Of a DNA stretch of 64,000 nt, positions 5,592 to 51,963 are shown piece after piece (position 1 is the first letter of the stretch; the number at the start of each line of letters is the position of its first letter). The DNA is from a virus: IMG/VR virus record IMGVR_UViG_3300036859_000580, positions 1-64,000 of that record. The stretch is one strand, 5' to 3'. Made by a program: the position numbers and the translations under genes. The notes under the pieces were generated by a model. That model saw only the letters and a program-made list of their open reading frames with translations, ran no database searches and was not told the origin of the DNA.

Positions 5592-5948
5592 TCAACTTCC
5601 CTTCGTGATCGGGTTGACGCCGCCGCGCACGCGGATCGCGTTCACCTCGTCCAGGTGCGCGCTCCAGTACTTGTTGCTGCGCTCGAACTCGTCCATGGTG
5701 TTGAGTTGCACGCACAGGTGCGACCAGCAGTACACGCCGTCGTGCGCGCCGCTTACTTGGCGAACCTTACGCCTACTCGTCTTGAACCGCCACGTCGCCT
5801 GATTCTTACAACGGTACCTCTCCTTCAGCTCCGGGTCGTGCACGGCCTTGAGCGACATCTGGCCCCAACGGTAGCCGTCGCACGGCCGTGATCTCTTATA
5901 CAGGGTGACCCAGGGAAGCATCTCGGCGAGTTCCTGACGCCACGTCAT
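5592..5948 (-). CDS. Hypothetical protein with four conserved-looking cysteines
   Basis: 118 aa. Cysteines in RPCDGY, YRCKN, YCWSHLC and a GVYCWSH motif suggest a zinc site. Strong ribosome site GAGGAAAG before ATG. Last upstream gene of the paralogue pair. Confidence 0.65.
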   Translation of the reverse strand: MTWRQELAEMLPWVTLYKRSRPCDGYRWGQMSLKAVHDPELKERYRCKNQATWRFKTSRRKVRQVSGAHDGVYCWSHLCVQLNTMDEFERSNKYWSAHLDEVNAIRVRGGVNPITKGS

Positions 5949-6075: not shown

Positions 6076-6246
6076 CTACCTCACCAGCGTGCTGACGAAC
6101 CACAGCATCGCGAGCGGTAGCGCGATCGCCGTAAGCACCGGCAGCGACGCCCAGACCGCGACGGGAACGGTGAGCGCGATGAACGCCGTGTCCCAGTTGA
6201 GGACGTGCGACACGAGCGCCGCGTCGATCCAGCGTGGCCTACGCAT
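6076..6246 (-). CDS. Small membrane protein
   Basis: 56 aa from MRRPRWIDAAL. Two hydrophobic stretches (TAFIALTVPVAVWASL and LTAIALPLAMLWFVST). Start overlaps the upstream gene by 8 nt. Function unknown. Confidence 0.6.
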   Translation of the reverse strand: MRRPRWIDAALVSHVLNWDTAFIALTVPVAVWASLPVLTAIALPLAMLWFVSTLVR

Positions 6247-6526
6247 CGTAGCGCTTGATCCGCTCCGCGACCGCATCGGCCGAGCGCGACGCGAACACGC
6301 GGCCCTTGAAGACCGGCGGGTCGTGCGGGTACCAGTCGCCCTCGCCCTCGTCACTGTTCTTACTCACCCAGCGCTCGGCCTCGTTCGCCGCGTGGATCAC
6401 GAAGCTGACCGGCAGCTCGGTGCCGAAGAACGCGTGAACCTTCGTCGTGACCTGCTCGTTGAGTGCGTCGAGCGTCTCTCCCCGAACGTTGAACTCGATG
6501 ACCAGGTCCGTGTTGTCGGCGGTCAT
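6239..6526 (-). CDS. Hypothetical protein
   Basis: 95 aa, soluble, MTADNTDLVIEFNVRGETL. No recognised domain. Coupled to the membrane protein downstream. Confidence 0.65.
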   Translation of the reverse strand: MTADNTDLVIEFNVRGETLDALNEQVTTKVHAFFGTELPVSFVIHAANEAERWVSKNSDEGEGDWYPHDPPVFKGRVFASRSADAVAERIKRYDA

Positions 6527-6823: not shown

Positions 6824-7230
6824 CTGAGCAGCTCGCCGATCTGGATCGCCGACGCCGGCGAGTACGCCGTGTCACGCTCGTTCCACGTGGTCCAGTTCAG
6901 CGCAGCGAGAAGCGGCCGGATGCCCGCCCACCAGCCGGCGTTCGCCGCGCCGTGAACACGAAGCCAACGCTCGGCGGTCCACGCGCCGACGCCGTGCCCA
7001 GGCTTCTCGATCGTGAGCGACGTGCCGCCCGCGGTCACCAGGAGGAACGTGTACGCCCGATCCGTCGCCGAGTCGACGTGCGGCATCACGTGCACCAGTG
7101 CCACGCGGTAGCGGGTCGCGTCGCCGGGTGCCCAGTACGCGTAGATCGGCATCGGGAGAAGCTGACCGGTGATCTCGCGGCCGGCGTGCAGCACCCGTGC
7201 CAGCTGCTCGGCGTTCTTGAACTCGTCCAC
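6820..7230 (-). CDS. Hypothetical protein
   Basis: 136 aa from a GTG that overlaps the preceding TAG by one base. Tryptophan-rich C-terminal half (WTAERWLRVHG, GWWAGIRPLL, NWTTWNERD). Family not recognised. Confidence 0.65.
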   Translation of the reverse strand: MDEFKNAEQLARVLHAGREITGQLLPMPIYAYWAPGDATRYRVALVHVMPHVDSATDRAYTFLLVTAGGTSLTIEKPGHGVGAWTAERWLRVHGAANAGWWAGIRPLLAALNWTTWNERDTAYSPASAIQIGELLR

Positions 7231-7601
7231 TAGTACCTCCCCTGGAGCGTGGCGATCATGGCGCGCTTCTCCCACTCCAGCTTGGCCTGGTCGATCTCGA
7301 AGAACTTCGCCAGCAGCGTCTGGATGTACTCGCCGTTCGGCACCCAGCCCTCGCGGTGCGCCGTCGTGGTGCCCCTGCCGTCGCAGACTCGGCACGCGCC
7401 CCTGTCACGACCGTCCGTGCCTACGTGCCGACCGTCGTTGCAGTCGTGCCAGACGTCGCCGTAGCAGGTAACCTCCTCATCGTCCTCGTACCAGCGCATC
7501 AGGTGCGTACCCCGCGATGCCAGCCACTCGATGAACTCACACACCACCTGCGACTGCGCGGCGACTCGACTTAACTTCTCGTGCTCCGGTTGCTCAGTCA
7601 C
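7230..7601 (-). CDS. Hypothetical protein with a DnaJ-like zinc knuckle
   Basis: 123 aa. CYGDVWHDC and CRVCDGRG resemble half of the CxxCxGxG zinc modules of DnaJ. N-terminal helix VVCEFIEWLASRG. Likely a small nucleic-acid or protein-binding factor. No enzymatic motif. Confidence 0.7.
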   Translation of the reverse strand: MTEQPEHEKLSRVAAQSQVVCEFIEWLASRGTHLMRWYEDDEEVTCYGDVWHDCNDGRHVGTDGRDRGACRVCDGRGTTTAHREGWVPNGEYIQTLLAKFFEIDQAKLEWEKRAMIATLQGRY

Positions 7602-7851
7602 TCCTACGCTCCATTCGTCGTCGGGCCTGCGTCACTGCGTCCCAGGTGACGCCGAGTATCTCCGCCGCGTCACTCTTACTCTTACCCGAGCGAAGCAGCA
7701 TCCGAGCCTCGTGCACGAGCTCGCTCGCCGGGTAGGTCCGTCGTGAGTAGTCGTCGATCGTGCCGTTCTTGTGGCACCGGCGGTAGCACCTACGGCACAG
7801 GCCGCGCACTCTTCGCGCGACATTCACTCCGCACGACGCGCAGCCCGTCAC
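7594..7851 (-). CDS. Zinc-finger plus helix-turn-helix DNA-binding protein
   Basis: 85 aa with GTG start overlapping the upstream stop (GTGA). N-terminal CASCG...CRRCYRRC zinc site. C-terminal SKSDAAEILGVTWDAVTQARRR reads as a helix-turn-helix. Probably a small transcription factor. Confidence 0.7.
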   Translation of the reverse strand: MTGCASCGVNVARRVRGLCRRCYRRCHKNGTIDDYSRRTYPASELVHEARMLLRSGKSKSDAAEILGVTWDAVTQARRRMERRSD

Positions 7852-8129
7852 GGGTACGACGTCCCAACTGGGTACTTCCGTGCTGTGGCCTCGCTCACGC
7901 ACAGGTAGTGGTCGATCTTCACCAGCATCGGGTCGCCGGTGACCGGGTTCTTGGCCTCCTTGGTGCTCACGACGCGGAGGCCCCAGTTGGGCGTTGTGCA
8001 GTTGAATGGCGCGGCGTGCGCGTTCTCGGGCGCGACGACCTCGCTCGACTTGCCGACCACCTTAGGTTCGACGTTGCACGCGGCCAGGGTGAGTGTCGCC
8101 AGGGCGAGCGTTGGCATCAGTCGGTTCAC
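7848..8129 (-). CDS. Lipoprotein, paralogue of the upstream gene
   Basis: 93 aa. Lipobox LAAC with acceptor Cys at about residue 18 after a hydrophobic signal segment, so predicted to be exported and anchored in the outer leaflet. The C-terminus CVSEATARKYPVGTSYP mirrors CVDSGLAGTYRVGSTYP of the neighbour. GTG start in a GTGA overlap. Phage lipoproteins can act in superinfection exclusion, which is only a possibility here. Confidence 0.75.
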   Translation of the reverse strand: MNRLMPTLALATLTLAACNVEPKVVGKSSEVVAPENAHAAPFNCTTPNWGLRVVSTKEAKNPVTGDPMLVKIDHYLCVSEATARKYPVGTSYP

Positions 8130-8383
8130 GGGTACGTGCTCCCGACCCTGTACGTGCCGGCCAGCCCCGAGTCCACGCACACGGTGCGAATCGTCTTGAC
8201 GGTGTTACCCGCCGAGTCGACGTGCGTCTCGCTGGTCTCAACCGACAGGGCGAACGTCTTGGGTGGGTTCGGGCACGCGGCTCCGTCCTCGGCGTTGCCC
8301 ACGACGATCCCCCTGACGTTCGTGCACGCGCTCGCGGTCACTAGCGTCGCCGCGAGCGCGAGCGTCGTCAGCGTCCAGCGCAT
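8126..8383 (-). CDS. Lipoprotein
   Basis: 85 aa. Signal peptide LTTLALAATLVTASAC with lipobox Cys20. Conserved C-terminal CVDS...YRVGSTYP shared with the downstream paralogue. Start overlaps the upstream stop by one base. Confidence 0.75.
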   Translation of the reverse strand: MRWTLTTLALAATLVTASACTNVRGIVVGNAEDGAACPNPPKTFALSVETSETHVDSAGNTVKTIRTVCVDSGLAGTYRVGSTYP

Positions 8384-8712
8384 CAGACCTCACCCCGCGT
8401 GGCCTCGTCGTAGCCCTCCCAGTTGTCGACGCCCGCCGCGCGCAGCTTGGCGAGCGTGTCGGCGTCACGTTGGAGTTCCTGCAGGTACGTCTGCCGGACC
8501 AGCGTGATCGCGTGCGTGCCGTCGGCGATCAGCGGCGAGTCCACCAGTCGGTTGAGCTGCACGACGACGTGGCCCACGGCCTCGGCGCCGAGCGTGCTCG
8601 CGTTGCTGCCGTCGAACCGCGGGTTCGCGTTGCCGTCGGTGAGCGTCTTGGTGATCACCGTCTCGTCGAAGTTGTTGTCGGTCTTGACTGTTACTGTGAT
8701 CTCGAGCGGCAC
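8383..8712 (-). CDS. Hypothetical protein
   Basis: 109 aa, soluble, beta-rich N-terminus (LEITVTVKTDNNFDETVITK) and helical C-terminus. First gene of the unit that continues into two lipoproteins. Function unknown. Confidence 0.65.
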   Translation of the reverse strand: MPLEITVTVKTDNNFDETVITKTLTDGNANPRFDGSNASTLGAEAVGHVVVQLNRLVDSPLIADGTHAITLVRQTYLQELQRDADTLAKLRAAGVDNWEGYDEATRGEV

Positions 8713-8765
8713 TTTCGTCCCTTCGTGTCGTTGGTTAGATCCTAGCGAGTCGACGCACTACGGCG

Positions 8766-9125
8766 TCACGGACGCTGGTCGTCGCACACTTCGGCGATCG
8801 TGATGTCCAGCAGCCACGTCGCGTCGGCCGTCGTGACCTCCGCCTGGTCGATCAGCAGTTCGGTGAGCCGCGCGTAGTCGGTCGTCGCCGTACCCGCCGC
8901 GGCGGCCCGCAACCCGCGGCAGATGTTGTTACCCACGATCACCGCCGAGCTCGGCGTGAAGAAGTCCTCACGCCCGCCGGGGAAGTGCGCGACCACGCGC
9001 TCGACGTAGCTGGGCGTGGGCGTGGGTGTGAGCACGCTCGTCGGCGCGGGGCTCGGGTCGGCCGGCGCGCCGGTCGCCGTCGCGATGACGACGACCAGCG
9101 CGGCGAGCGACGTCGCGACGCTCAC
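8766..9125 (-). CDS. Secreted protein resembling DUF732
   Basis: 119 aa. Signal peptide (SLAALVVVIATATGAPA), a Pro/Thr linker, then a helical domain with NNICRGLRAA and IAEVCDDQ. Two cysteines spaced as in actinobacterial DUF732 secreted proteins. Probably disulphide-bonded outside the membrane. Family match is by pattern only. Confidence 0.6.
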   Translation of the reverse strand: MSVATSLAALVVVIATATGAPADPSPAPTSVLTPTPTPSYVERVVAHFPGGREDFFTPSSAVIVGNNICRGLRAAAAGTATTDYARLTELLIDQAEVTTADATWLLDITIAEVCDDQRP

Positions 9126-9379
9126 GTCTTCACCGCATTCCTACCGAGTTCGGAGCGCGGGTCGTCGGTGGTTGGATTGACCGCAAGTGCGGTCATCACC
9201 GACTCGTCGAAGACGTACAGTCGAACATCACTGGGATATTGACGCTCGGCGTTGAAGTCGATCAACTCGTTCACCTGGTCGCGCGCGTCGTCGCGACTCG
9301 TCGCGCGCACCCAGATCGGCGGCTGGGGCTCATTGCGATCGAGGTACGCGATCACCTTGAACATACGAAGTTCGCTCAC
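9122..9379 (-). CDS. Hypothetical protein
   Basis: 85 aa, MFKVIAYLDRNEPQPPIWVRA with DARDQVNELI, an alpha/beta fold typical of small phage proteins that adapt tag-like inputs. ATGA overlap with the DUF732-like gene. Confidence 0.65.
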   Translation of the reverse strand: MSELRMFKVIAYLDRNEPQPPIWVRATSRDDARDQVNELIDFNAERQYPSDVRLYVFDESVMTALAVNPTTDDPRSELGRNAVKT

Positions 9380-9427
9380 TGCGTTCTCCTTCTCTCCTGG
9401 CCTCGTCAGGACACGCGTGACGTGTCG

Positions 9428-9441
9428 ACGCCTCCCGGCGT
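9428..9441. terminator. Short hairpin ACGCC-TCCC-GGCGT
   Basis: Five-bp stem with a four-base loop, followed by TTT on the plus strand. The same sequence recurs at about 21430-21443, and a variant at 53626-53638. All three lie between genes, suggesting a reused terminator or processing element. Confidence 0.4.
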
Positions 9442-9450
9442 TTCGGCCTA

Positions 9451-9585
9451 CTAGTCCTTGTTCCAGTCCTGGTCGAGAGCCGCCTCGGCGTCAGCCTTCA
9501 GCTTTGCGATCCTGGCCTCGGTCTCGGCACGGAAGTCATCCTCGGCCTTCTGGGCCGCCGCTGCCTTGTCATCCGCTTTACCCAT
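9451..9585 (-). CDS. 44-aa coiled-coil protein
   Basis: MGKADDKAAAAQKAEDDF onward is fully helical with heptad-like Ala/Leu spacing and ends DWNKD. Strong AAGGAGAGCATC before ATG and its own promoter at 9622-9650. Possibly a small dimerising or scaffold-like factor. Confidence 0.7.
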   Translation of the reverse strand: MGKADDKAAAAQKAEDDFRAETEARIAKLKADAEAALDQDWNKD

Positions 9586-9621
9586 GATGCTCTCCTTCAT
9601 CGTGGTGTTCCTACGAGAACG

Positions 9622-9650
9622 ACTTTATCACACCGTGATGATGGAGTCAA
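9622..9650 (-). promoter_or_regulatory. Promoter TTGACT-N17-TAAAGT
   Basis: Minus-strand -35 TTGACT (9645-9650), exact 17-nt spacer, -10 TAAAGT (9622-9627). It drives the 44-aa coiled-coil gene. The best sigma70-like match in the window. Confidence 0.75.
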
Positions 9651-9660
9651 CGGTCGATCA

Positions 9661-10074
9661 TCACAGCTGATCGCGCAGGTTGTCCAACGACGTGCCGAGC
9701 GCCGAGACGGCGTCGGTCAGGTCGCCCTCGGCGGATTCGACGTCGCTCTCGGCGTCGTCGATCGCCGTGTCGAGGTCGTCCACCTCGTCGGAGTCGTCGT
9801 CGACCTCATCGCGCGCCTCGTGCGCGGTGTCCACCGCGTCGCGGGCGTCGGCGAGCTCGGTGGCGCTCGTCTCGATCTCGTCGGCGTCGTCGCTCACGCT
9901 CGCCACGAACAACTCGAGGTCCTCCATGAGCGAGCGCAGCGGGGCGACGACGTCGTTTCGCACCTCGTCGATCCACTCGCTCGCCCGGTCGGCGTCGTCA
10001 CCGGGACTGACCGACCGCAGCTGCTCGATCCGGTCGAACGCCGCGTGAAGGACGTCGCGAAAATTCTCGGCCAT
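9661..10074 (-). CDS. Acidic coiled-coil protein
   Basis: 137 aa. Extremely acidic, with repeated D/E-A-x-D heptads from residue 60 on, consistent with a long coiled coil. Could be a DNA mimic or an oligomeric scaffold. Promoter TTTACA-N17-TACGGT upstream and an AAGGAG site before ATG. Confidence 0.75.
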   Translation of the reverse strand: MAENFRDVLHAAFDRIEQLRSVSPGDDADRASEWIDEVRNDVVAPLRSLMEDLELFVASVSDDADEIETSATELADARDAVDTAHEARDEVDDDSDEVDDLDTAIDDAESDVESAEGDLTDAVSALGTSLDNLRDQL

Positions 10075-14414: not shown

Positions 14415-15584
14415 CTAGTCCCCCTTGACGTTGAGGATCTGACGCAGCGTGTGCCGCACCTCGACCAGGTCGGCGGCGTCCTTCATGACGACGTCGATGT
14501 CCTTGTACGCGCCGGGGATCTCGTCGATGAACGCGTCGGTGTCGCGGTACTCGATGCCGACCATCGCCTGACGCAGGTCCTCGTGCGTGAACGTCCGACG
14601 CGCGACGGTGCGCGAGTAGTTGCGTCCGGCACCGTGCGGCGATGAGTCCAGGGCGAACCGGTCGCCCTTGCCGACCACCACGTACGACGCTGTGCCCATC
14701 GAGCCGGGGATCAGACCGGCCGTGCCCACGCTCGCGTCGATCGCGCCCTTGCGGGACAGCCACACCTTCTCGCCGAAGTGACGCTCCTGGACCGTGTAGT
14801 TATGATGGCAGTTGATCGTCTCCTGCCGACTGACCGGCTCGCCGATCCAGTCGGCGACGCACTTGACGACGCGGTCCATCATCTCCTCGCGGTTGAACCA
14901 GGCGAACGCCTGCGCCCACCGCATCTCGCGGATGTACTTCCAGAACTCGGGGTCACCGTGGACCAGGTAGGCGAGGTCCGGGTCGGGGAGGTCGATCCAC
15001 CGACGCCTGCACTGCTCGATCGCGACCTTGATGTGGTGCGTGGCGATCTTGTTGCCGACGCCCCGCGAGCCGCTGTGCAGGAAGAGCCACACACGACCGA
15101 CCTCGTCGACCGTCACCTCGATGAAGTGGTTGCCCGAGCCGAGCGTGCCGAGCTGAAGCTCCCAGTTCGCCGCGTAGTCACTCGGATCGAACAATGAGTC
15201 ATCGGCCCGGGCACGTAGCGTGTCGACGCGCAGCTCGGCCGTCGAGGTCAGCCGCGTGTTGTACTTGCCGGCCGACGTCGGCACGGCGGCCTCGATGCTC
15301 TCGCGCAGCGGGCGCAGGTCCCGGTTCTTGATGTCGTCCACGTCGAACTGCGTGCGGACGGCAATCATGCCGCAGCCGATGTCGACGCCGACCGCGGCCG
15401 GCATGATCGCGCCGCGCGTGGGGATGACGCTCCCCACCGTCGCCCCCTTGCCCAGGTGCGCGTCCGGCATGAGCGCGACGTGCGGGTAGATGAACGGCAT
15501 GGTCGCGATGAGCTCGGCCTGGGCGCGCGTGTTCGGCTCCAGGATCGACGCCCAGTTCATGAGTCGGTCGTTGACTCGCTCCAT
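14415..15584 (-). CDS. rtcB: RtcB-family RNA ligase
   Basis: 389 aa, close to the compact form of the family. Conserved blocks seen: MPDAHLGKGATVGSVIPT (about 39-56), GVDIGCGM with the metal-binding Cys71, LGSGNHFIEV, HSGSRGVG, CHHNY, and SSPHGAGRNYSR (about residue 315), which contains the histidine that is guanylylated. RtcB joins RNA 2',3'-cyclic-phosphate or 3'-phosphate ends to 5'-OH ends using GTP and Mn2+, and acts in tRNA splicing and repair. The phage also has tRNA genes that look circularly permuted, giving it an obvious possible substrate. Ends with its own hairpin. Confidence 0.97.
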   Translation of the reverse strand: MERVNDRLMNWASILEPNTRAQAELIATMPFIYPHVALMPDAHLGKGATVGSVIPTRGAIMPAAVGVDIGCGMIAVRTQFDVDDIKNRDLRPLRESIEAAVPTSAGKYNTRLTSTAELRVDTLRARADDSLFDPSDYAANWELQLGTLGSGNHFIEVTVDEVGRVWLFLHSGSRGVGNKIATHHIKVAIEQCRRRWIDLPDPDLAYLVHGDPEFWKYIREMRWAQAFAWFNREEMMDRVVKCVADWIGEPVSRQETINCHHNYTVQERHFGEKVWLSRKGAIDASVGTAGLIPGSMGTASYVVVGKGDRFALDSSPHGAGRNYSRTVARRTFTHEDLRQAMVGIEYRDTDAFIDEIPGAYKDIDVVMKDAADLVEVRHTLRQILNVKGD

Positions 15585-22799: not shown

Positions 22800-23066
22800 T
22801 CAACGCCGACCGTCGCCCGGCACGACGCGCACCCGCTGGTCCAGCGGCGTCGTGAGGTAGCCATCCGTGAGGTTCGGCTCGACGACTCGCCACACCTGCG
22901 GCGACACCTCGATCGTGACGTCTTCAGCGTGATCCAGTCGACTGCACGTCAGCATCGCGCTGCGTACCAGCTGCCTCATCACCTCGGCGGTGAATCGCTC
23001 GCCGCACCGCGTCAGCTCACTGTCATCGGGTTCGCCGTCGCCGAGATCACCCGGCGCCGTCATCAT
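22800..23066 (-). CDS. Hypothetical protein
   Basis: 88 aa, helical core (FTAEVMRQLVRSAMLTCSRL) and beta tail. Overlaps the upstream gene by 20 nt. Unknown. Confidence 0.6.
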   Translation of the reverse strand: MMTAPGDLGDGEPDDSELTRCGERFTAEVMRQLVRSAMLTCSRLDHAEDVTIEVSPQVWRVVEPNLTDGYLTTPLDQRVRVVPGDGRR

Positions 23067-23310
23067 CGCTCCGCGACCTCGGCGGCGGGAGCGTGCGACC
23101 CAGGATCTTGCCGGCCTGCGCCGCGCAGTCCTCGCCGAAGCTGGCGAGCCCGTAGAACGGCGACGACTCGTTGGGGGAGTCCCACGTCGCCGCGTACCGC
23201 GAGATCTGCACGTAGTCGAGGCCGATCTTAAGCCACGACTCGATCGCGAGCGCGCGCTCCCTGTTGATGATGCGCGCCAACCGTCTCGGATCCATGCGGG
23301 GTTCCGTCAC
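23047..23310 (-). CDS. Hypothetical protein
   Basis: 87 aa, MDPRRLARIINRERALAIESWL is a strong amphipathic helix. GTG start. Unknown. Confidence 0.6.
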   Translation of the reverse strand: MTEPRMDPRRLARIINRERALAIESWLKIGLDYVQISRYAATWDSPNESSPFYGLASFGEDCAAQAGKILGRTLPPPRSRSDDDGAG

Positions 23311-23351
23311 CGTCGTGCCTCCTCGTTCCCATCAACTCATCGTCGTCGTCG

Positions 23352-23609
23352 TCAGCGCATGCCGCAACCTAGGTGCGGCGTGACGTGCTGGTCGCCGACG
23401 CACCGTCGCCGCGGTCGCAGCGTGCTGGGGATCGGCACGCCGGGCGCCGCCTCGGTGTGGATGACGTCACCCAACGCCGCCGCGCAGACGCAGTTGCCCA
23501 CGCCCGACTGGACGTCGCGCGCGTACACGTGCGGCAGCCGGTACTCGCTGCGGAACGGCCCCACCGAACCCTCGTGCCCCGGCACCGCGTGGTGCCGAGC
23601 GGTGGTCAC
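23352..23609 (-). CDS. Hypothetical protein
   Basis: 85 aa from GTG in a GTGA overlap with the methyltransferase gene. GVGNCVCAAALGDV and TPHLGCGM contain the cysteines. Unknown. Confidence 0.55.
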   Translation of the reverse strand: MTTARHHAVPGHEGSVGPFRSEYRLPHVYARDVQSGVGNCVCAAALGDVIHTEAAPGVPIPSTLRPRRRCVGDQHVTPHLGCGMR

Positions 23610-24199
23610 GCGTCCCGCCTCAGCACGACGCGGCCGTGGTAAATGTCGCCCTGGTCGATCACCGTGAAGCCCCGCTCCAGCAGGTAGGGCACCGCGTCGC
23701 CGCCCTTGCCGTTCCAGCCGGGTCCAGGTGTCGGGTCGAGCACCGACGGCAGCGCCCACGTGTCGTCGCACGCCACGATCCCGCCGGCGATCACGTGCGG
23801 CTCGACCAGCATCGCCACCGAGAGGTGCGACGCGAGGCTCGCCTGACGCGAGTACGCCTGGCCGCGCGCCTCATACTCGAGTCGCTGCGCGTCCCACATG
23901 CCCTCGGGCGCGTGCTCGTACGGCCAGTCGTGCCCGTCCAGCCAGGCGAAGCCGATCGGCAGGGTCCAGGTGCGCAGCACGTCCTCGGCGCGTCCGCGGT
24001 GCGGCAGCACGTTCGGGATTGAGCACGCCCGGTCGATCTGACCCGGGTCGACGTCGATCACGTGCATCGGCGGCCCGACCTTGCTGAGGAACGTGGTCGA
24101 CCCCTCGCCGTCCGAGTCGCGTTCGACGCCCACCTCGAGGATGACCGCGCCGGGCGGGTACGCCACGTCCGCCGCCACCTTGTACCCCTGGGTTCCCAC
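23606..24199 (-). CDS. Class I SAM-dependent methyltransferase (family 24-like)
   Basis: 197 aa. AVILEVGVERDSDGEGSTTFL is motif I (E/DxGxxxGxS), HVIDVDPG motif II, FAWLDGHDWPY the motif IV-like strand with an acidic metal ligand, and GGIVACDDTW later. This resembles the methyltransferase-24 group, which often acts on sugars or small molecules, so it may trim the phage's glycan. Substrate not determined. Confidence 0.75.
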   Translation of the reverse strand: MGTQGYKVAADVAYPPGAVILEVGVERDSDGEGSTTFLSKVGPPMHVIDVDPGQIDRACSIPNVLPHRGRAEDVLRTWTLPIGFAWLDGHDWPYEHAPEGMWDAQRLEYEARGQAYSRQASLASHLSVAMLVEPHVIAGGIVACDDTWALPSVLDPTPGPGWNGKGGDAVPYLLERGFTVIDQGDIYHGRVVLRRDA

Positions 24200-24219
24200 G
24201 TGCGCAACCCTAGCACACA

Positions 24220-24251
24220 GGCCCCGGGTCCTCGTGGTGAGGATCGGGGCC
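24220..24251 (-). terminator. Terminator hairpin
   Basis: GGCCCCG/CGGGGCC with an inner TCCTC/GAGGA stem, between the 24267 gene and the methyltransferase unit. Confidence 0.6.
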
Positions 24252-24266
24252 CGCGGCGTGAAGTGA

Positions 24267-24443
24267 TCAGGCCCAGTACGCCTTGACCTCCGCGCCGGAC
24301 GCGATCAGCGCGCTGATCTCATCGGTGGTGAGCACCCGCTCAGGCTGGGTCTCGCACAGCGTGCGGGTGGACTTGAGGGTCGCGGTCAAGCGGCCGAGGC
24401 GGAAGGTGCGGGTCGCGGTGACCGAGACGGTGCGAACGTTCAT
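24267..24443 (-). CDS. 58-aa hypothetical protein
   Basis: MNVRTVSVTATRTFRLGRLT, a beta hairpin, then VLTTDEISALIASGAEVKAYW. Own promoter upstream and terminator downstream, so it is monocistronic. Confidence 0.65.
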   Translation of the reverse strand: MNVRTVSVTATRTFRLGRLTATLKSTRTLCETQPERVLTTDEISALIASGAEVKAYWA

Positions 24444-24486
24444 CGTGATCTCCTAGGTTCCTAAGCTGTTTTGCGGTGCTAAGACA

Positions 24487-24515
24487 ATAGTACCACAACG
24501 ATGGTGACGTTGACC
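24487..24515 (-). promoter_or_regulatory. Promoter GGTCAA-N17-TACTAT
   Basis: -10 at 24487-24492, -35 at 24510-24515, then TTGTCTTAGCACCGC. An imperfect operator candidate, GTGAAC-TAC-GTTCAC (24538-24552), lies upstream. Confidence 0.65.
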
Positions 24516-24552
24516 GGCACGAGCGAGACAATCTTACGTGAACTACGTTCAC

Positions 24553-24900
24553 TCACCGCCTACCTCGGCGCGCGAACGCGGTCCGCGCGGGTCCAGTGTG
24601 CGGTGCCCTCGGCCTCGCGCCGTCACGCAGTCCGTCGAGCGGCCCCTCGGTGACGTCGGCGTCGACGTAGGCGCCCTCGTCCACCCGCACCTTGGTGCCG
24701 CGCACCAGCACGTACCGCAGCTCGTTACCGTCATCGTGCAGCTCGCCCCGCCGCTCGAGGAGCCGGACCACCTCGCTTCCCAGCGTGACCGTCAGCCGGT
24801 GGTCGCCGCCTAGGTGGTGACGCCGTCGGAGCGCGACGACCTCCGCGCCCAACGGCGTGAGGATGTCGTCGTCGCCTCGGTCGTCACGCGGTGTCGTCAT
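24553..24900 (-). CDS. Hypothetical protein
   Basis: 115 aa, MTTPRDDRGDDDILTPLGAEVV. Alpha/beta first 90 residues, low-complexity basic tail. Overlaps the terminase-like gene by 17 nt. Unknown. Confidence 0.6.
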   Translation of the reverse strand: MTTPRDDRGDDDILTPLGAEVVALRRRHHLGGDHRLTVTLGSEVVRLLERRGELHDDGNELRYVLVRGTKVRVDEGAYVDADVTEGPLDGLRDGARPRAPHTGPARTAFARRGRR

Positions 24901-30728: not shown

Positions 30729-31469
30729 ATGACCACCAAGTTGCACACGGTTCTCGCGCTCCTCAAGGGAACGCGCCAGCGTGCCTACGCGGCGAACGCG
30801 GAGCTGCGCAAGACCGCCAAGAAGAACGACCTGTACGCGGGCATCGCCCGGCGGTACCAGCCGCGCAAGGAGGACGGCGACACGCTGCCGGAGGAGTCCA
30901 CGCTCGTCCAGCAGGACGCGGGCGACATCCTGGAGCAGTTCGTCGCGAACCAGGTCAAGCTGTGGGACCTGACGGGCACGATGGAGGCGACGAGCGGCGT
31001 CGCCCGCGCGGACATCATCACCGCCAACAACACCGTGCTGGCGACCGACGTCCCGGCCACGTTCATGCTCTTTCTCGAGCGTCAGCTGGACGACGTACGG
31101 ACGTTCATCAACGACATCCCGACTCTCAACCCGGCCGAGGTTTGGCACACCGACCCGAGCGGGACGTGGGCGACGGAGCCGTTCAAGACGGTGCGGACCA
31201 AGAAGATCCCCCGGAATCACGTGATCGCGCCGGCCACCGACAAGCACCCGGCGCAGGTCCAGGTGTTCACCGAGGACGAGATCGTCGGCGACTGGACCAC
31301 GATCAAGTACTCCGGCGCGCTGGCGGCCGGGCACAAGCGCGAGATCATCGACCGGATCGACGCGCTCAAGGACGCGGTCAAGTCGGCCCGCGAGCGCGCG
31401 AACGAGGCGGAGGTCGTGGAGGTACGCGTGGCGGCACGCCTGTTCGACTACCTGCTCGGTGGCTCGTAG
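30729..31469 (+). CDS. DUF7873-like family protein
   Basis: 246 aa from MTTKLHTVLALLKGTRQRA. The pattern of RRYQPRKEDGDTLP, VPATFMLFLERQLDDVRTFI, PAEVWHTDP, VRTKKIPRNHV and KREIIDRIDALKDAVKSAREEAN-type helix matches a conserved actinophage family of unknown function that I know as DUF7873. Precedes the tRNA locus. Confidence 0.75.
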   Translation: MTTKLHTVLALLKGTRQRAYAANAELRKTAKKNDLYAGIARRYQPRKEDGDTLPEESTLVQQDAGDILEQFVANQVKLWDLTGTMEATSGVARADIITANNTVLATDVPATFMLFLERQLDDVRTFINDIPTLNPAEVWHTDPSGTWATEPFKTVRTKKIPRNHVIAPATDKHPAQVQVFTEDEIVGDWTTIKYSGALAAGHKREIIDRIDALKDAVKSARERANEAEVVEVRVAARLFDYLLGGS

Positions 31470-31563: not shown

Positions 31564-31641
31564 GGCACGGTAGCTCAACGGTAGAGCAACGAGCGGCGGG
31601 AGTCGCTCTTACGGTTCCAGGTTCGAGTCCTGGACGTGCCG
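31564..31641 (+). tRNA. tRNA-like gene with expanded anticodon arm
   Basis: Acceptor GGCACGG/ACGTGCC (6 of 7 pairs), D arm GCTC/GAGC, T arm CCAGG/CCTGG with TTCGAGT are normal. The 29-nt stretch between D and T arms is 6 nt too long. Best pairing is GAGCG/CGCTC (extendable by an A-T across a mismatch) with an 8-nt loop GCGGGAGT lacking U33. GGG in the loop would read proline codons if functional. Confidence 0.6.
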
Positions 31642-31689
31642 CGCAGCACTAGACACAGACGCAGTGACAGTGAAAGACAGATCGGAAAA

Positions 31690-31768
31690 CCCCGTTAGTG
31701 GAGGTTCGAGTCCTTCCCGGGACACTCATGCCCCGGTAGCCCAATTGGCAGAGGCGCGGGGACCCGCA
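31690..31768 (+). tRNA. Candidate circularly permuted tRNA (3' half before 5' half)
   Basis: 3' half first: anticodon strand CCCCG (31690-31694), 5-nt variable TTAGT, T arm GGAGG/CCTTC with TTCGAGT, acceptor CCGGGAC, discriminator A31724. Six bases later the 5' half: acceptor GCCCCGG (31730-31736), TA, D arm with AATTGGCAG, anticodon strand CGGGG (31757-31761). Across the permutation the anticodon stem pairs 5/5 and the acceptor 6/7. The anticodon cannot be assigned with confidence. Confidence 0.6.
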
Positions 31769-31829
31769 CAGACACTCGCTGCAGACACAGCACGCACGCC
31801 TAGGACCGGATCGACTGGTCGTGTCAATG

Positions 31830-31912
31830 ATTCCGAGACGGTGGTTCGAATCCGCCCGCGCGCTCCAAACATCATGCGCGCGTAGTAGAGTGGCAACACG
31901 CGGATCCCTAAG
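31830..31912 (+). tRNA. Candidate circularly permuted tRNA with encoded CCA
   Basis: 3' half first: anticodon strand TTCCG (31831-31835), variable AGAC, T arm GGTGG/CCGCC with TTCGAAT, acceptor CGCGCGC, U73 and CCA (31865-31867). After 8 nt the 5' half: acceptor GCGCGCG (31876-31882), TA, D region GTAGAGTGGCAACAC, anticodon strand CGGAT (31901-31905). Acceptor 7/7, anticodon stem 4/5; the D stem is weak. By position the anticodon would be CTA (amber), but base 33 is C. Confidence 0.5.
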
Positions 31913-31955
31913 ACAAAGTCCGACCTGCACCGCTGCCGGTACGCCGAATAGGCAG

Positions 31956-32027
31956 TACATCAAAGCTCAATGGTCGAGCAACTGACTTCTAATCAGTGTG
32001 AAGCGGGTTCGATTCCCGCTGATGTCA
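31956..32027 (+). tRNA. tRNA-Arg (anticodon TCT)
   Basis: D arm GCTC/GAGC, anticodon arm ACTGA/TCAGT with loop CTTCTAA, T arm GCGGG/CCCGC with TTCGATT. Acceptor 6/7 with an unpaired first position. CCA not encoded. Supplies a rare AGA decoder in a high-GC context. Confidence 0.92.
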
Positions 32028-51896: not shown

Positions 51897-51963
51897 GGGT
51901 CCGTAGCTCAACTGGTTGAGCGCCTCGACGGAGGAGTTGTAGGTTCGAATCCTACCGGGCCCA
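51897..51963 (+). tRNA. tRNA-like gene with a collapsed anticodon arm
   Basis: Acceptor GGGTCCG/CGGGCCC (one G-T), D arm GCTC/GAGC, T arm GTAGG/CCTAC with TTCGAAT are all normal. The anticodon arm is only CCTC-GACG-GAGG, a 4-bp stem with a 4-nt loop, so no anticodon can be presented. Six bases after a strong terminator. Confidence 0.6.

What the first reader, a model, noticed from the sequence alone, without database searches (positions are those of the whole stretch)
31690..31768. Circularly permuted tRNA gene (first candidate) in a phage
The 3' half of a tRNA (CCCCG, TTAGT, T arm, CCGGGAC, A) precedes its 5' half (GCCCCGG, TA, D arm, CGGGG) with only 6 nt between. Across this inversion the anticodon stem pairs 5/5, the acceptor 6/7, the variable loop is exactly 5 nt, and G18G19 and TTCGAGT are in place. 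No better partner for either half lies nearby in normal order. Permuted tRNAs are known to me from some algae and archaea, not phages.
Basis: partly seen in the sequence, partly recalled or inferred. Interest (0 to 1): 0.92.

Follow-up and report, generated by a model that had tools for sequence, protein, structure and literature searches.

The report
Phage RNAs with back-to-front tRNA domains
The odd "inside-out tRNA" in this phage is real, but instead of being a tRNA gene it is one of two tRNA-shaped heads of an apparently undescribed structured RNA that sits next to a gene of unknown function (DUF7873) in many phages and some actinobacterial chromosomes, which suggests an unrecognised RNA-protein machine that mimics tRNA.

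Summary
At 31690-31761 a tRNA 3' half precedes its 5' half (acceptor 6/7, anticodon stem 5/5, T arm 5/5). A structural scanner gave no hit above 18 in 38.4 Mb of random sequence; this site scores 18.94. A second module lies at 31831-31905.

The interpretation "permuted tRNA gene" is not supported. Relatives show both modules belong to a conserved, unannotated RNA locus directly downstream of DUF7873 (PF25283): in 71/80 viral DUF7873 loci and 20/20 actinobacterial chromosomal ones. Covariance models built without this phage or its near relatives recover both window elements full length (75 and 83 bits). Stalk helices beyond the "anticodon stem" covary (26 of 31 pairs with two-sided changes), and U33 is at background frequency for every possible join, so no decoding anticodon loop exists. 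Only 3/38 DUF7873 phage records encode RtcB.

The closest known thing is the bacterial Y RNA YrlA, itself a permuted tRNA-like head on a Ro60-binding stalk. A model of 46 actinobacterial Y RNAs matches only the tRNA-like core here, and no Ro60 was found. My reading is a new family of paired, Y-RNA-like tRNA mimics whose likely partner is DUF7873. Structure and linkage are shown; expression, partner binding and function are inferred.

The parts
30729..31469 (+). DUF7873 gene (PF25283), protein of unknown function; proposed partner of the RNA
   Evidence: Pfam E=2.9e-84. The same gene lies directly upstream of the modules in 71/80 viral and 20/20 chromosomal DUF7873 loci examined. AlphaFold2 mean pLDDT 94.7, no confident fold match. 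RNA binding not tested.
31651..31796 (+). RNA element 1: module 1 with its flanking stalk strands
   Evidence: Covariance model R2, built without this phage, L010, L011 or L209: full-length match 75.2 bits, E=1.1e-14
31690..31724 (+). Module 1, tRNA-3'-half-like strand: anticodon-stem strand, variable loop, T arm, acceptor 3' strand, discriminator A
   Evidence: Sequence; scanner 18.94
31725..31729 (+). Module 1 acceptor-closing loop CTCAT (CACTCA[AT]G conserved in close relatives; CCA at this position in about half of the family's modules)
31730..31761 (+). Module 1, tRNA-5'-half-like strand: acceptor 5' strand, TA, D arm with GG, anticodon-stem strand CGGGG
31793..31946 (+). RNA element 2: module 2 with its two-helix stalk
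   Evidence: Covariance model R3, built without this phage, L010, L011 or L209: full-length match 83 bits, E=1.3e-21
31805..31821 (+). Element 2 stalk, 5' strand: outer helix ACCGG, internal-loop motif AUCGACU, middle helix GGUCG
   Evidence: Conserved AUCGACYG motif. Partner strand 31921-31940 reads CGACC / UGCACCGCUG / CCGGU, the 7 x 10 internal loop also seen in L010, L011 and L209
31831..31864 (+). Module 2, tRNA-3'-half-like strand (TTCCG AGAC GGTGG TTCGAAT CCGCC CGCGCGC T), followed by CCA 31865-31867
   Evidence: Sequence; acceptor 7/7 with 31876-31882; orthologues in L010, L011, L209 and L208
31876..31905 (+). Module 2, tRNA-5'-half-like strand (GCGCGCG TA D arm G CGGAT)
31921..31940 (+). 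Element 2 stalk, 3' strand: middle helix CGACC, internal loop UGCACCGCUG (family consensus CUUAAACG), outer helix CCGGU
14415..15584 (-). RtcB RNA ligase gene; about 2.6 kb from the modules in L013-L015, distant here; not a general partner
   Evidence: PF01139 E=4.6e-120; 3/38 DUF7873 phage records have it

Best explanation
The site is the first of two heads of a conserved non-coding RNA locus that travels with DUF7873. Each element folds as a long stalk whose 5' and 3' strands pair, with a helix equivalent to a tRNA anticodon stem at its top, capped by a circularly permuted tRNA elbow (T arm, acceptor helix closed by a short, often CCA-containing loop, D arm). SHOWN: the fold and its covariation, the pairing of modules about 150 nt apart, conserved stalk motifs (RYUSAR repeats around module 1; AUCGAC opposite CUUAAACG in element 2), near-universal linkage to DUF7873, and absence of a decoding anticodon loop. 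INFERRED mechanism, the most likely in my view: DUF7873 binds the stalk internal loops and forms an RNP in which the tRNA-shaped heads engage a tRNA-handling enzyme of the cell (a ribonuclease such as PNPase, as YrlA does; RNase P or the CCA enzyme; or a tRNA-cutting defence nuclease) and tether or decoy it. Confidence about 0.95 that this is a conserved DUF7873-linked RNA of this fold, about 0.4 for the tether/decoy role, lower for any particular target.
For: Models R2/R3, trained on other phages and chromosomes, hit window 31651-31796 (75.2 bits, E=1e-14) and 31793-31946 (83 bits, E=1e-21) full length, while tandem tRNAs (best 36) and actinobacterial host Y RNAs (best 43, mostly core only) score far lower. 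Covariation on 29 sequences: 94.5% of cells paired, 26/31 pairs with two-sided changes, score 0.717 against 0.236 shuffled (0/500) and <=0.158 when slid, stalk helices included. Flank strands pair better within a phage than between phages (module 2 p=2e-9, module 1 p=1e-4). Modules downstream of DUF7873 in 71/80 viral loci, upstream in 1, and in 20/20 actinobacterial loci; also Gordonia, Rhodococcus, Arthrobacter, Pseudanabaena, Klebsiella, Rhizobium and Vibrio phages. U33 at background. Nothing at Rfam gathering thresholds covers it. YrlA precedent: tRNA-like head binds PNPase, stalk binds Rsr (PMC8394870).
Against: No expression or binding data. DUF7873's fold matches nothing of known function, so RNA binding is a guess from linkage. 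CCA directly after the discriminator in 48/93 modules is hard to explain if the acceptor loop is never opened. The scanner requires pairing, so its per-module counts are selected, although the random background is nil. Whether the two modules form one RNA or two is unknown.
Confidence: 0.6

Rival explanations
1. Canonical YrlA-type Y RNA that binds Ro60 (the host's, since none is found in the phage).
For: Same permuted module order. The 63 actinobacterial Ro60-linked Y RNAs recovered here have a 7-bp acceptor, T arm and D arm on a two-helix stalk with a 10-nt 3' internal loop. YrlA covariance hit at 31667-31785, E=0.003. Actinobacteria commonly encode Ro60. A 108-kb phage (G046) carries Ro60, canonical Y RNAs and this element.
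Against: A model of 46 host Y RNAs scores true phage Y RNAs 95-117 bits full length but the window and its near relatives only 20-32 bits over the core, like tandem-tRNA controls. Ro60 motif sequences (GGUGCGCAGG ... GAUCUCGG) are absent. No TROVE protein in G000, G001 or G002. In G046 the two kinds coexist as separate loci.
Confidence: 0.12
2. Two-piece, tmRNA-like use: RNase P and 3' processing open the acceptor loop, leaving a CCA end on a tRNA-like head that is aminoacylated independently of an anticodon and used as a donor or signal.
For: CCA after the discriminator in 48/93 modules against about 1/64 expected. Permuted tmRNA families give weak core hits at module 2. The stalk replaces the anticodon arm as in tmRNA.
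Against: No tag frame or pseudoknot domain recognised. No G3.U70 alanine identity pair in the modules I inspected. CCA absent in half the modules, including window module 1. ARAGORN's permuted tmRNA call in L217 spans unrelated sequence.
Confidence: 0.15
3. Genuine circularly permuted tRNA gene: anticodon-side ends are cut and ligated (RtcB) to a circle, then RNase P and 3' processing release a decoding tRNA.
For: Complete acceptor, T and D arms; encoded CCA in module 2; RtcB encoded in this phage and in the L010, L011 and L015 relatives.
Against: U33 at background for every join. In L208 module 2 the stem continues through the loop positions. Stalk helices covary. RtcB in 3/38 DUF7873 phages.
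Confidence: 0.05
4. Debris or coincidence: leftover halves of a decayed tRNA array.
For: Lies within a tRNA cluster; one acceptor mismatch; weak D stem in module 2.
Against: Random background nil; covariation in diverse phages and chromosomes; near-universal DUF7873 linkage.
Confidence: 0.01

Closest known systems
YrlA bacterial Y RNA (RF02553) of rsr-yrlBA-rtcBA operons
   Same: Permuted tRNA-like head (T arm, closed acceptor, D arm) on a stalk made by the 5' and 3' ends; can be tandem; sometimes near RtcB
   Different: Here linked to DUF7873, not Ro60; Ro60-binding stalk sequence not recognised; fixed pair about 150 nt apart; different stalk motifs; CCA frequent in the acceptor loop
Circularly permuted tRNA genes (Cyanidioschyzon merolae, other algae, some archaea)
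   Same: 3' half precedes 5' half with a short spacer between acceptor strands
   Different: No anticodon loop or U33; covarying stalk instead; no splicing endonuclease known here
Two-piece (permuted) tmRNA
   Same: Acceptor ends joined by an internal loop in the precursor; stalk in place of the anticodon arm
   Different: No tag reading frame or pseudoknots recognised; two heads; DUF7873 partner
Phage-encoded Ro60 plus Y RNA cassettes (e.g. G010, G046; Streptomyces phage BRock encodes a Ro60-like protein)
   Same: Phage-borne permuted tRNA-mimic RNAs next to an RNA-binding protein gene
   Different: Different protein family and stalk

Membership tests
Decoding tRNA from a circularly permuted gene | Acceptor, D and T arms form across the inversion | tested here: met
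   Acceptor 6/7 here, 7/7 in relatives with compensatory changes
Decoding tRNA from a circularly permuted gene | Joined ends give a 7-nt anticodon loop with U33 | tested here: not met
   U33 in 11-16/59 modules for every join
Decoding tRNA from a circularly permuted gene | Circular intermediate and mature tRNA in RNA data | not testable with these tools
   No RNA-seq available
YrlA / Ro60-binding Y RNA | Permuted tRNA-like module on a stalk | tested here: met
YrlA / Ro60-binding Y RNA | Rfam RF02553 above the gathering score | tested here: not met
   24.6 bits against 69; tandem tRNAs reach similar scores
YrlA / Ro60-binding Y RNA | Ro60-binding stalk sequence as in actinobacterial Y RNAs | tested here: not met
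   R1 matches only the core (49-104 of 138) in the window
YrlA / Ro60-binding Y RNA | Ro60 gene in the same genome | tested here: not met
   No PF05731 in G000, G001, G002; present in related G046. The host is unknown and could supply it; the record may be incomplete.
Two-piece tmRNA | Rfam tmRNA families above gathering; G3.U70; tag reading frame | tested here: not met
   Only 13-19 bits against 70-84; no G3.U70 in the modules inspected; tag frame not searched systematically
DUF7873-linked paired permuted RNA (defined here) | DUF7873 directly upstream and full-length match of both element models | tested here: met

The most novel reading that the evidence does not exclude
A previously undescribed ribonucleoprotein, DUF7873 plus a two-headed tRNA-mimic RNA, spread over phages of actinobacteria, cyanobacteria and proteobacteria and present in about 8% of the actinomycete-class genomes sampled, acts on the cell's tRNA machinery (for example as counter-defence against tRNA-cutting systems or as an adaptor of an RNase).
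Probability: 0.6. Interest if true: 0.9.

Novelty: new variant of a known kind. Interest (0 to 1): 0.83.

Why it matters
It turns a single odd locus into a widespread, unannotated RNA family with a named protein neighbour of unknown function. The family extends the Y RNA idea (a permuted tRNA mimic on a protein-binding stalk) beyond Ro60 and gives DUF7873 a testable role. Phages and tRNA-targeting defences are in active conflict, and a conserved phage tRNA mimic without an anticodon loop is a natural candidate player. The locus is compact (about 1.1 kb) and easy to clone and test.

Tried and rejected
Natural "Tornado" idea (self-cleaving ribozymes in the flanks feeding RtcB): no ribozyme family found at lenient thresholds. 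RtcB as obligate ligase partner: only 3/38 DUF7873 phages encode it. Canonical Y RNA: the R1 model fails on the stalk. YrlA score alone as evidence: tandem tRNAs and E. coli also ring. tmRNA: weak core hits only, and ARAGORN's tmRNA* in L217 is spurious. A first DNA pattern was mis-spaced and found nothing; the corrected one found new members. Protein-based search with the window's DUF7873 alone found nothing; the alignment search did. Anti-phage-defence, PHROG and NCBIfam libraries give nothing for DUF7873. Fold search of DUF7873 gave nothing confident. Papers: no mention of DUF7873; none of the hits for permuted tRNA with phage or bacteria appeared to describe this, judged by title and abstract. 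The library is open-access only, so prior description elsewhere cannot be excluded.

Full report
OBSERVATION. ARAGORN and Rfam do not call it; they call a tRNA with an odd anticodon arm upstream (31564-31642) and a normal tRNA-Arg(TCT) downstream (31956-32027). The window is part of an 84,363-bp virus record. I wrote a scanner for the permuted geometry (T arm, acceptor, spacer, acceptor, D arm, anticodon stem across the inversion). It returns the site at 18.94 and gives no hit of 18 or more in 38.4 Mb of random sequence with the window's dinucleotide make-up.

FIRST RELATIVES. DNA polymerase (76% identical) led to L008-L011 and RtcB to L013-L015. Those that cover the locus keep two permuted modules in the same place, with different but matching acceptor strands: GTCGGAG/CTCCGGC and GCTGAGG/CCTCGGC for module 1; GGCTGCC/GGCAGCC and GCGCGCA/TGCGCGC for module 2. 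This excludes debris. The phage encodes RtcB at 14415-15584, which made the permuted-tRNA reading attractive at first.

Y RNA AS THE PRECEDENT. A lenient Rfam scan matched YrlA. YrlA is a tRNA mimic with a tRNA-like D, T and acceptor domain on a stem that binds the Ro60 orthologue, sometimes encoded with RtcB (PMC8394870, PMC7790460). I fetched 80 actinobacterial Ro60 loci: 70 have permuted tRNA-like modules, most just upstream of Ro60, and 63 have Y-RNA flanks. So a permuted tRNA-like module is ordinary Y RNA anatomy. A covariance model of 46 of these (R1) scores true phage Y RNAs in a Ro60-encoding phage at 95-117 bits full length, but our modules only over the tRNA-like core at 20-32 bits, like tandem tRNAs. 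Ro60 was not found in G000 or its near relatives, though a more distant member, G046, has Ro60, canonical Y RNAs and this element at separate places. The locus therefore resembles a Y RNA in architecture but fails the Ro60-Y-RNA membership test.

THE FAMILY. The gene directly upstream in all early members is DUF7873 (PF25283). It occurs in 73 phage records infecting Gordonia, Rhodococcus, Arthrobacter, Rhizobium, Klebsiella, Vibrio and cyanobacteria. In the annotated regions I read, it is followed by a stretch largely without annotated genes, and permuted modules with matching acceptors lie there in 10 of the 11 examined. A scan with an alignment of 16 DUF7873 proteins gave 80 viral loci: 71 have modules downstream, 1 upstream. 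In a sample of 297 genomes from the class of a Streptomyces, 24 carry DUF7873, and 20 of 20 such loci examined have modules just downstream; ten neighbourhoods inspected look like stand-alone cassettes among chromosomal genes. Paired T arms are usually 143-164 nt apart.

ANATOMY. Alignments of the flanks show conserved motifs: RYUSAR repeats before module 1, (A)GACUCAGAUUAUCGCUCYAGACUCAGC after it, AUCGACYG before module 2, and RACUGA then CUUAAACG after it. The two flank strands of each module pair better within a phage than between phages. On 29 aligned element-2 sequences, all six helices, including the two main stalk helices outside the tRNA-like head, keep their pairing through change: 94.5% of cells paired, 26 of 31 pairs with two-sided changes, score 0.717 against 0.236 in shuffles and at most 0.158 when slid. 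Models R2 and R3, trained without the window, L010, L011, L014 or L209, recover the window's two elements full length at 75.2 and 83 bits.

WHY NOT A TRNA GENE. A decoding tRNA needs U33 in its anticodon loop. For every way of joining the two flanks into a 7-nt loop, U33 occurs in only 11-16 of 59 modules. In one relative the helix simply runs through the loop positions (L208). RtcB accompanies only 3 of 38 DUF7873 phages. One feature pulls the other way: CCA follows the discriminator in 48 of 93 modules, so opening of the acceptor loop (a two-piece RNA) remains possible.

PARTNER. DUF7873 is predicted with high confidence (pLDDT 94.7) as helices plus a long beta hairpin, without a confident match among solved or viral structures and without a family hit in PHROGs, NCBIfam or PADLOC. 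Its function is unknown; a role in binding the RNA is inferred from linkage alone.

MECHANISM. By analogy with YrlA, where the stalk holds a protein and the tRNA-like head recruits an RNase (PMC8394870), I think DUF7873 holds the stalks and the heads engage tRNA-handling enzymes, tethering or decoying them. Fold, covariation and linkage are shown; transcription, binding and target are not. Nothing at Rfam gathering thresholds covers the element.

VERDICT. The permuted-tRNA-gene reading is replaced by a new variant of permuted tRNA-mimic RNA with its own protein neighbour. The literature check covers only open-access papers.

Noticed in passing
L124-L203, just upstream of Ro60 (e.g. L125:3817-3952): Many actinobacterial Y RNAs appear to carry a complete anticodon stem-loop 5' of the T arm (7-nt loop, U33 in 52/53), i.e. 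a full permuted tRNA mimic with varied anticodons; others pair the 5' strand with the D-side strand as the phage modules do.
   Followed up: partly
window 31564-31642; L010 about 6210-6297; L011 about 5688-5773: The normal-order tRNA upstream of module 1 has an extended anticodon arm (window 8-nt loop on about 7 bp; L010 16-nt and L011 25-nt insert-like loops, with TGTGGTGG shared by L010 and L011), so it may also be non-decoding or intron-bearing.
   Followed up: partly
L094 / G010 22950-24900: A 58-kb phage encodes Ro60, RtcB and up to four tandem Y RNAs, one without a tRNA-like head.
   Followed up: partly
L217 (G046:8000-22000): Phage with Ro60 and canonical Y RNAs at 11.2-11.8 kb and the DUF7873-linked element at 18.4-18.7 kb; ARAGORN calls a spurious permuted tmRNA there.
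   Followed up: partly
L331: Chromosomal DUF7873-RNA cassette near genes that look like pheS/pheT and argC; in several Streptomyces-like genomes (L332, L334, L335) it keeps the same neighbour aminotransferase-like gene.
   Followed up: no
L006 about 7211-9790 (minus strand): A large virion-module ORF begins with a stretch resembling a 2H phosphoesterase (LigT-like); not tested.
   Followed up: no
window 51897-51963: tRNA recognised by Rfam (53.5 bits) but missed by ARAGORN.
   Followed up: no
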